A DNA stretch of 64,000 nucleotides from Protula sp. h YS-2021. Taxonomy: Eukaryota > Annelida > Polychaeta > Sabellida > Serpulidae. Location: NCBI GenBank assembly GCA_949752745.1, contig OX457027.1:17936603-18000602 (forward strand), written 5' to 3'. Every line of letters begins with the position of its first letter. Within the stretch, counting starts at the first letter, position 1. The notes under the pieces were generated by a model that was not told the DNA's origin, searched no databases, and worked only from the letters and a program-made list of their open reading frames with translations. This document shows, one piece after another, positions 17,159 through 47,763 of the stretch. Made by a program: the position numbers and the translations under genes.

Positions 17159-17708
17159 GATGAAAACAACAACTGTTATGAGAGTTCCTTGGTGAATCAT
17201 CCTGTATTTCCTGGAACATTTATACTATGGCGAAATATCAGCATTATTCATTCGTAGAATTAACTCGCGTTTTATCAGTATGGGTAGCAATTTACTTCAG
17301 CTCTATACATGCACAATCATGGAATGACAACCCCTATGGTGTCTTTAACCCAGCGTCTAGGTCCCACCTTGAAGTGAACCCTCCTCACGGAACGTGCGGG
17401 GATGGAGGCAGTGATCGCTTTTACCATCGCATTCAAAATTCAATCATGAACTGTTCGTTGGATTGTGACGCCAGCAGAAGATTTCCTGATAAATTTGACA
17501 CGCTCACAGTCACTGAGTTTCTGGACCTAAACGACATGGAATCGTTTTGGGCGTCGGACTGTGTGTACGAGGAACTGGAGATGCCACAACGAAAGCGCGC
17601 GGTGGAGGGTCAACCCTGTGCGCTCCAAAGGGTCATTTCCGACAACAGCTATTATCGCGAAACTTACACTTTCCAAATCAAGCCGGAAAACTCCAATCTC
17701 AAAGACGG
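17159..17708 (+). CDS. RTK exon 1: 5'UTR end, signal peptide, N-terminal Cys segment
   Basis: The acceptor TTTTAG at 17158 implies at least one upstream non-coding exon. The ATG at 17227 is followed by a hydrophobic run ([12 protein letters not shown]), a likely signal peptide ending near HAQS. The segment [12 protein letters not shown] and later NCSLDC parallels the usherin N-terminus. Donor GTAATT; ends in phase 2. An out-of-frame ATG at 17160 closes quickly. A basic RKRA word lies near residue 123. Confidence 0.85.

Positions 17709-47763: not shown

What the first reader, a model, noticed from the sequence alone, without database searches (positions are those of the whole stretch)
17227..47763. 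A MET-type kinase with an usherin/Frizzled-type head
Seen: 21 exons with matching phases read from signal peptide to tail; IPT repeats, transmembrane helix and MET-like kinase lie downstream of laminin-G-like, Frizzled-CRD, laminin-N and laminin-EGF segments. Known: MET and RON carry Sema-PSI-IPT; usherin starts with laminin-G, laminin-N and EGFs; ROR/MuSK have a Frizzled CRD but no IPT. Inference: exon shuffling joined a matrix/Wnt-like recognition head to a MET stalk and kinase, giving a receptor class with a different ligand. I know of no vertebrate counterpart.
Basis: partly seen in the sequence, partly recalled or inferred. Interest (0 to 1): 0.88.

Follow-up and report, generated by a model that had tools for sequence, protein, structure and literature searches.

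The report
Usherin-headed MET-type receptor kinase
One stretch of an unnamed animal's DNA holds, in order on one strand, the coding pieces of a head related to a usherin-type matrix protein (with a Wnt-receptor-type Frizzled domain between them), a MET-type stalk, a membrane anchor and a tyrosine kinase; a second locus in the same genome repeats this layout without the Frizzled domain, so the pieces likely make one receptor that is predicted to switch its kinase on when the head meets extracellular matrix.

Summary
The observation largely holds. I rebuilt 20 exons (17227-47763, +); phases match at 18 of 19 junctions. Two faults remain in this assembly: a phase mismatch between two laminin-N exons, and a frame change inside the exon that holds the membrane anchor. 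The stalk (3 IPT), anchor and kinase are MET-group by profile and tree. The Frizzled domain is clear (2.5e-9). The laminin-type head is too diverged for Pfam alone, but a profile built from this genome's usherin-type gene and from a second locus matches it at 5.6e-13 (45.5 bits; best of 2000 shuffles 8.3). That second locus (contig C6, 65.05 Mb) is the key finding: laminin-N, eight laminin-EGF matches, IPTs, membrane helix and a degenerate kinase in the same order, with 11 intron positions of matching phase, including the EGF-to-IPT joint. Two genes misread as one is therefore very unlikely. The nearest published class is Met-LP (plexin ectodomain plus MET-like kinase); here a usherin-type head replaces Sema. 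No protein in my two full-length database searches, and no paper in my literature searches, joins these parts. Expression, ligand and function are untested; the frame faults could mean errors or decay.

The parts
17227..17708 (+). Exon 1: ATG, likely signal peptide (by eye), cysteine-bearing usherin-type N-terminal region, start of laminin-G-like domain
   Evidence: Open frame, donor CGG|GTAATT, out phase 2; the own-genome usherin-type gene has a donor of out phase 2 at the equivalent place
20627..20774 (+). Exon 2: laminin-G-like domain
   Evidence: In 2, out 0; Laminin_G_3 4.2e-4, below cut-off
24840..24903 (+). Exon 3: laminin-G-like domain (FINGEY strand)
   Evidence: In 0, out 1; same in-phase 0 in the usherin-type gene and the C6 locus
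25250..25280 (+). Exon 4: laminin-G-like domain, short exon (least certain)
   Evidence: In 1, out 2; lines up with the GQ strand of the usherin-type gene and the C6 locus
26344..26615 (+). Frizzled CRD exon a (alternative, higher-scoring acceptor 26337)
   Evidence: In 2 (or 1 from 26337), out 1; Pfam Fz 2.5e-9 together with the next exon
27241..27357 (+). Frizzled CRD exon b
   Evidence: In 1, out 1; Pfam Fz
27689..27752 (+). End of laminin-G-like domain (alternative acceptor 27693 would allow skipping of the Frizzled exons)
   Evidence: 64 bases, in 1, out 2; the C6 exon is also 64 bases with the same phases
28208..28514 (+). Laminin-N, first part
   Evidence: The significant stretch of the usherin-type+C6 profile runs into it; its open frame also matches alone at 1.6e-5
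31517..31659 (+). Laminin-N, second part; junction with the previous exon is out of phase
   Evidence: In 1 after out 0; the usherin-type gene and the C6 locus have 0/0 here
32906..33102 (+). Laminin-N, third part
   Evidence: In 0, out 2; only weakly matched to the C6 locus on its own (E 0.27)
35304..35436 (+). Truncated laminin-EGF unit
   Evidence: EGF_laminin 0.032, profile 1-25 of 49; 19 of 37 residues identical to the last EGF unit of the C6 locus, E 6e-9
36791..36932 (+). IPT 1, first part; phase-0 joint to the EGF unit
   Evidence: TIG; the C6 locus has the same phase-0 EGF-to-IPT joint
37314..37545 (+). IPT 1 and 2
   Evidence: TIG; out 2 as in the C6 locus
39850..40259 (+). IPT 2 and two furin-type sites (RRRR, RVRR)
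   Evidence: the region matches the C6 locus at 4.6e-16
40967..41673 (+). IPT 3, membrane-proximal region, transmembrane helix, start of kinase; one frame change near 41125
   Evidence: Two overlapping frames, both conserved with the C6 locus and P0002; membrane segment KD 3.43
42319..42500 (+). Kinase: helix C to hinge
   Evidence: In 1, out 0, same as C6 locus
43335..43444 (+). Kinase: HRDLAARN loop
   Evidence: In 0, out 2, same as C6 locus
44398..44560 (+). Kinase: DFG and activation loop with DYY
   Evidence: In 2, out 0, same as C6 locus
45193..45329 (+). Kinase: WSYGVTMWE
   Evidence: In 0, out 2, same as C6 locus
47106..47763 (+). Kinase end and tyrosine-rich tail, stop
   Evidence: Tail motifs YLEM, YLKP, YLAP, YLPP, YSN

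Best explanation
The locus holds the exons of what is very likely one single-pass receptor tyrosine kinase, in which a usherin-type head (laminin-G-like, laminin-N, a stub of laminin-EGF) with a Frizzled CRD likely inserted in it sits on a MET/Met-LP-type stalk of three IPT domains, a membrane helix and a MET-group kinase with all its catalytic motifs. Shown by calls: order and strand of the parts, kinase and IPT identity, homology of the head to a usherin-type gene, and a second locus with the same order. Inferred mechanism: the laminin-N/laminin-G head would bind basement-membrane or other matrix polymer (as laminin-N domains do in laminins and netrins, recalled), so that receptors cluster where matrix is met; furin-type cleavage in the stalk would leave a two-chain receptor; clustering would let the twin tyrosines of the activation loop be phosphorylated in trans as in MET, and the tail (YxxM, YxN, three YxxP) would recruit PI3K-, Grb2- and Crk-type adaptors. 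The C6 relative with a degenerate kinase would be a partner or decoy that shares the matrix-binding head. The Frizzled CRD was probably added to the window's gene by exon insertion into a phase-1 intron, and could be left out by splicing.
For: One gene: 18 of 19 junctions in phase; no alternative first exon (ATG at least 45 bases before a donor scoring above 0, phase 0) between EGF and IPT exons in either locus (0 candidates in each); same EGF-to-IPT joint and 11 matching intron phases in the C6 locus. C6 locus: Laminin_N 6.3e-19, EGF_laminin 8 stretches, TIG 3 stretches, kinase 8.9e-70. Head: usherin-type+C6 profile hits the window head at 5.6e-13, best of 2000 shuffles 8.3 bits against 45.5. 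Kinase: among the 60 shown of 823 PDB sequences MET and RON lead the single-domain scores, before MER and IGF1R; MET group 97/93, 90/90 with the C6 kinase included; grouping with TAM rejected, p-AU 0.029. Catalytic motifs CAIK, HRD, DFG, DYY present. Stalk with basic cleavage-type sites at two aligned places shared with P0002 and the C6 locus.
Against: Two frame faults mean that the locus as assembled does not give one open protein. Pfam alone does not find Laminin_N in the window, and the significant profile match covers the laminin-G end and laminin-N start only. Read on past its donor, the EGF exon meets a stop ten codons later, so a short secreted form cannot be excluded. No transcript was available. 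A head-only search of the protein collection gave 0 hits at E <= 1 among 6293 candidates, so no other species confirms the gene. The C6 protein was assembled partly by hand. Ligand, cleavage, dimer formation and tail partners rest on motifs and recalled biology. With own-genome kinases added, the base of the MET group is unresolved and TAM is not separated.
Confidence: 0.6

Rival explanations
1. The locus is a decaying copy (pseudogene) of a usherin-headed MET-type receptor whose working relative is elsewhere or lost; the architecture is real, this gene is dead.
For: One out-of-phase junction and one frame change inside an exon; laminin-EGF array cut to half a unit against eight matches in the C6 locus.
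Against: Only two faults in about 4.7 kb of coding sequence while the catalytic motifs, eight Frizzled cysteines and 18 of 19 junctions are kept; such faults also arise from assembly. A whole-genome DNA search for a second haplotype did not complete.
Confidence: 0.25
2. Two neighbouring genes, a secreted usherin-like protein and a separate MET-like kinase, lie on the same strand and were read as one.
For: No transcript evidence; the joint lies in a 1.35 kb gap (35437-36790); the EGF exon meets a stop ten codons past its donor.
Against: The same joint, in the same phase, occurs in a second locus with a 0.65 kb gap; neither gap holds a possible coding first exon under the criteria used; no strongly hydrophobic segment lies in the head.
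Confidence: 0.06
3. The Frizzled CRD exons are not part of the main transcript: they are an alternative cassette or belong to a nested gene, and the usual product is laminin-G, laminin-N, IPT, kinase without a Frizzled domain.
For: They interrupt the laminin-G-like domain; exon 4 (out 2) can join 27693 (in 2) directly, giving an unbroken laminin-G-like domain; no Frizzled match was found in the C6 locus, and none was seen at that intron of the usherin-type gene.
Against: The Frizzled exons fit in phase on both sides (2/2, 1/1, 1/1), and their exit phase uses the 64-base exon acceptor 27689 that has its counterpart in the C6 locus.
Confidence: 0.3

Closest known systems
Met-LP receptor kinases (Junqueira Alves et al. 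2019, PMC6374515; abstract, outline and passages read)
   Same: MET-like kinase under IPT domains, single pass; reported from Lophotrochozoa and Echinodermata. P0002, which has TIG_2, PSI, TIG and kinase and which I take to be of this kind, has the closest stalk and kinase in the protein collection
   Different: Met-LP has a complete plexin ectodomain starting with Sema; here no Sema or PSI was found and a usherin-type head stands in its place. The published survey searched by Sema, so such a gene would have been missed
MET and RON
   Same: IPT stalk, kinase group, twin activation-loop tyrosines
   Different: No Sema or PSI; furin-type sites lie in the IPT stalk; long tail with other motifs. 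The same genome has a separate Sema-PSI-IPT Met at C4:74.93-74.98 Mb
Usherin
   Same: N-terminal cysteine region, laminin-G-like, laminin-N, laminin-EGF, with matching intron phases in the own genome's usherin-type gene
   Different: No fibronectin repeats; kinase instead; EGF array cut to half a unit in the window
ROR and MuSK
   Same: A Frizzled CRD in a receptor kinase
   Different: Those have no IPT or laminin parts (recalled) and the kinase here groups with MET; ROR/MuSK kinases were not in the trees
C6:65.05 Mb locus of the same genome (L030-L034)
   Same: Laminin-N, laminin-EGF, IPT, membrane helix, kinase in one order
   Different: Eight EGF matches, no Frizzled CRD found, kinase with LKD for HRD and DAA for DFG

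Membership tests
MET/RON family | MET-group tyrosine kinase | tested here: met
   PDB: MET and RON lead the single-domain scores; trees 97/93, 90/90 and 92/90; base unresolved
MET/RON family | Sema and PSI domains | tested here: not met
   None by Pfam on the gene-model pieces; none of the 6 Sema matches in the genome lies in the window; the EGF stub joins the first IPT directly
MET/RON family | IPT domains before the membrane | tested here: met
   TIG, 3 stretches, 2.3e-15
Met-LP | Complete plexin ectodomain | tested here: not met
   As above
Met-LP | Stalk and kinase related to a plexin-like MET kinase | tested here: met
   P0002 433 bits; stalk alignment
Usherin | Laminin-G-like plus laminin-N head | tested here: met
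   Profile of the own usherin-type gene and C6 locus, 5.6e-13; intron phases. That gene is named usherin from its domain order and recalled human usherin, not from a database match
Usherin | About ten laminin-EGF units and a long fibronectin array (recalled) | tested here: not met
   Half an EGF unit; no FN3 listed by Pfam
ROR/MuSK | Frizzled CRD | tested here: met
   Fz 2.5e-9; 8 cysteines
ROR/MuSK | ROR/MuSK kinase clade | not tested
   No ROR or MuSK kinase was in the trees; the kinase groups with MET
Active tyrosine kinase | Lysine, HRD, DFG | tested here: met
   CAIK, HRD, DFG read in the exons; activity itself not testable here
Expressed single protein | One open spliced frame | tested here: not met
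   One phase mismatch and one frame change in this assembly

The most novel reading that the evidence does not exclude
An undescribed receptor class: at least two receptors in one animal in which a basement-membrane-type usherin head was fused to a MET/Met-LP kinase, one active and carrying a Wnt-type Frizzled CRD, the other a pseudokinase with a full laminin-EGF rod, together forming a matrix-sensing (and possibly Wnt-sensing) pair.
Probability: 0.35. Interest if true: 0.85.

Novelty: new variant of a known kind. Interest (0 to 1): 0.66.

Why it matters
Vertebrate kinases that read the matrix directly are few (the DDR collagen receptors are the textbook case, recalled). A MET-type kinase wearing a usherin head would be an independent invention of matrix sensing, would show that the MET stalk and kinase can be re-targeted by swapping the whole Sema head, and would give a natural test of whether IPT stalks transmit activation from any clustered head. 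It also shows that surveys keyed on Sema can miss part of the MET kinase group.

Tried and rejected
Ab initio exon chaining alone was rejected: it pulled in a minisatellite at 30723-31420 and other repeats. For the C6 locus the same method chained 41 exons; I dropped 16 predicted exons between rc 19286 and 26329 (a repeat-rich stretch with no domain match) and one at 33469-33540, and extended or added a few by hand before the searches. A two-gene reading was tested and set aside. Exon 4 to 27693 without Frizzled is kept as a rival. A small extra exon at the 28514/31517 junction was looked for without a convincing candidate. The usherin-type and C6 loci entered as weak hits (E 0.1 to 3.9) and were accepted only after reading their DNA. 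Loci C3:78.88 Mb and C11:4.47 Mb, equally weak, were fetched; C3 gave one short match with a stop inside (E 7e-5 in a small set) and was not followed further, C11 nothing better than E 4.9. PDB search with the head gave 0 hits; with the Frizzled part only weak ones, the best a bacterial enzyme at 0.26 and Frizzled-6 at 0.5. The species could not be named; a lophotrochozoan is a guess. Trees flagged long branches, so one was rebuilt without P0002 and the C6 kinase. Literature searches for the architecture showed none; PMC6374515 was read in abstract, outline and passages, PMC8662651, PMC4224354 and PMC4883820 in passages, all others in listings only.

Full report
Setting. The window is a piece of a contig of an animal genome of 863 Mb in 218 contigs (G000:C4:17936603-18000602). 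By my reading of the translated loci it also carries plexin-type and semaphorin-type Sema exons, a Frizzled receptor (L019), a usherin-type gene and a Met with Sema, PSI, IPT and kinase exons.

Gene model. I rebuilt the exons from open frames, splice-site scores and phases. Twenty exons run from an ATG at 17227 to a stop at 47763 on the + strand; of 19 junctions 18 match in phase. Sites were chosen with phase in view and some score weakly, so the count is a consistency check. Two faults are plain. The exon ending at 28514 leaves phase 0 and the next, at 31517, can only be read from phase 1. The exon 40967-41673 begins in one frame and continues in another from about 41125; both sides of that point are conserved in the C6 locus and in P0002, so an intron does not explain it. 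I cannot tell assembly error from mutation.

Domains. Pfam on the pieces gives kinase 2.3e-90, TIG in three stretches 2.3e-15, Fz 2.5e-9 (38.1 bits, cut-off 32.1), Laminin_G_3 4.2e-4 and EGF_laminin 0.032 (half the profile), both under their cut-offs; Laminin_N is not reported. Hydropathy shows one strong membrane segment, residues 1029-1065 of the 1566-residue model; a weaker peak at 656-677 lies in the first IPT. Two furin-type sites lie in the stalk. The kinase keeps its lysine (CAIK), HRD, DFG and the DYY of the activation loop. The tail holds YLEM, YSN and three YxxP motifs; which adaptors such motifs bind is recalled knowledge. The Frizzled domain has 8 cysteines where the textbook domain has 10; by my recollection the missing two (first and fifth) are a bonded pair.

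The head is usherin-type. A search of the whole genome with the head listed 16 matches: ten in the window and six weak ones (E 0.08 to 3.9), among them C1:65.49 Mb (two) and C6:65.05 Mb. The C1 locus reads as usherin: N-terminal cysteine region, laminin-G-like, laminin-N, laminin-EGF and fibronectin-like parts (Pfam Laminin_N 5.8e-10 there). The name rests on domain order and recalled human usherin. A profile from the C1 and C6 heads matches the window's head, Frizzled part left out, at E 5.6e-13 (45.5 bits); the best of 2000 shuffles reaches 8.3 bits, and of the window's own open frames only the one holding a laminin-N exon scores significantly (1.6e-5). The strong match covers the end of laminin-G and the start of laminin-N; the last laminin-N exon aligns by eye and adds little score (its own stretch -1.4 bits).

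The second locus. On the minus strand of C6:65.03-65.08 Mb lie laminin-G and laminin-N exons, laminin-EGF units, IPTs, furin-type sites, a membrane helix (by eye) and a kinase. The joined protein, partly hand-edited as told under Tried and rejected, gives Laminin_N 6.3e-19, EGF_laminin in eight stretches, TIG in three and kinase 8.9e-70. A run read as X (about rc 5.4-10.4 kb) hides its first exons and a repeat-rich intron (rc 19.3-26.4 kb) splits its EGF array. Its kinase reads LKD for HRD and DAA for DFG, so it is probably a pseudokinase. Introns compared with the window by eye on the aligned proteins: same place and phase at 11 positions, namely three in laminin-G (one known on the acceptor side only), one at the end of laminin-N, the EGF-to-IPT joint (0/0), one in the stalk and five in the kinase; the 64-base exon at the end of laminin-G has the same length in both. 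They differ at the joint of the last two laminin-N exons and of the first two IPT exons; one stalk intron of the window is absent from the C6 locus, which has extra introns in laminin-N, the stalk and near the membrane. The window's faulty junction is 0/0 in both the usherin-type gene and the C6 locus. The gap between EGF and IPT exons holds no possible coding first exon in either locus under my criteria (0 and 0 candidates); an untranslated or weak-donor first exon is not excluded. Two loci with one joint make a two-gene reading very unlikely.

The kinase. Of 823 matched PDB sequences 60 are shown: an EGFR construct with two copies tops the table by summed score (175.8 bits a copy), then MET (278) and RON (275), a chain named only tyrosine-protein kinase (7t6f, 251), MER (236) and IGF1R (230). 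Maximum-likelihood trees put the window with P0002 (97/94) beside MET and Mytilus Met (97/93), TAM outside (long branches flagged). With RON, INSR, DDR and the C6 kinase added, the MET group including both loci has 90/90, and without P0002 and C6 92/90; joining the window to TAM is rejected (p-AU 0.029), holding window, P0002 and MET/RON together without C6 is not (0.26). With kinases of the own genome added, the window pairs with the second of two tandem kinase domains at C6:6.89 Mb (93/86), the genome's own Met pairs with Mytilus Met (94/90), and the base, TAM included, is unresolved.

Relatives elsewhere. The full model found 111 proteins at E <= 1e-3 among 7993 scored candidates (a capped set); best are a Mytilus Met (P0001) and P0002, a 934-residue protein with TIG_2, PSI, TIG and kinase. 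The head alone found 0 of 6293 candidates at E <= 1. The C6 protein found 70 among 6349 candidates; by my reading of the Pfam column none joins laminin domains with a kinase or with TIG. These searches need shared five-letter words and see only proteins of 0.55 to 1.75 times the query's length, so absence is not proof.

Frizzled insertion. The Frizzled exons sit inside the laminin-G-like domain, between phase-compatible neighbours (2/2, 1/1, 1/1). The C6 locus gave no Frizzled match and none was seen at that intron of the usherin-type gene. A second acceptor four bases downstream (27693) would let exon 4 skip them and restore laminin-G. This is a simple, testable splice switch, but inferred.

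How it probably works. Shown: the parts and their order. Inferred: the head binds matrix, clustering activates the kinase in trans, furin-type cleavage makes two chains, the tail recruits adaptors, the C6 relative acts as partner or decoy. Known background: Met-LP receptors are reported from Lophotrochozoa and Echinodermata with unknown ligands (PMC6374515, passages; a word search of its main text found no laminin or frizzled); a holozoan kinome survey describes shuffling of ectodomains among receptor kinases and its main text has no laminin or IPT mention (PMC8662651, word search).

Verdict.

Noticed in passing
L046, L048, L049 (G000:C6:6866001-6896000): Two MET-like kinase domains in tandem, the first degenerate (HRN for HRD, DFE for DFG) and the second with HRD and DFG and closest to the window's kinase; no IPT of the queries matched in the 20 kb or so upstream (membrane segments were not scanned), where pieces of a Ras/Rho-like GTPase lie (name by eye).
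   Followed up: partly
L041-L045 (G000:C4:74930001-74980000, minus strand): A Met with Sema, PSI, IPT and kinase exons.
   Followed up: partly
L047 (G000:C4:68488001-68498000): PSI, an IPT-like piece and MET-group kinase exons, possibly a Met-LP; its upstream part could not be fetched.
   Followed up: partly
window 30655-31480: Minisatellite open in one frame (VCVLNS-type repeat), Pfam LED_rpt 3.6e-12 but 46.8 bits against a cut-off of 59, inside the intron between the two laminin-N exons with the phase mismatch.
   Followed up: no
window 35769-35990: Fragment that looks like a Harbinger-type transposase (by eye, untested) in the intron between the EGF and IPT exons.
   Followed up: no
window 5389-6135, minus strand: C2H2 zinc-finger open frame (zf-C2H2_6 8.8e-9) upstream of the receptor.
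   Followed up: no
window 46292-46915: Tandem repeat ([15 protein letters not shown] reading, seen by eye) in the last kinase intron.
   Followed up: no
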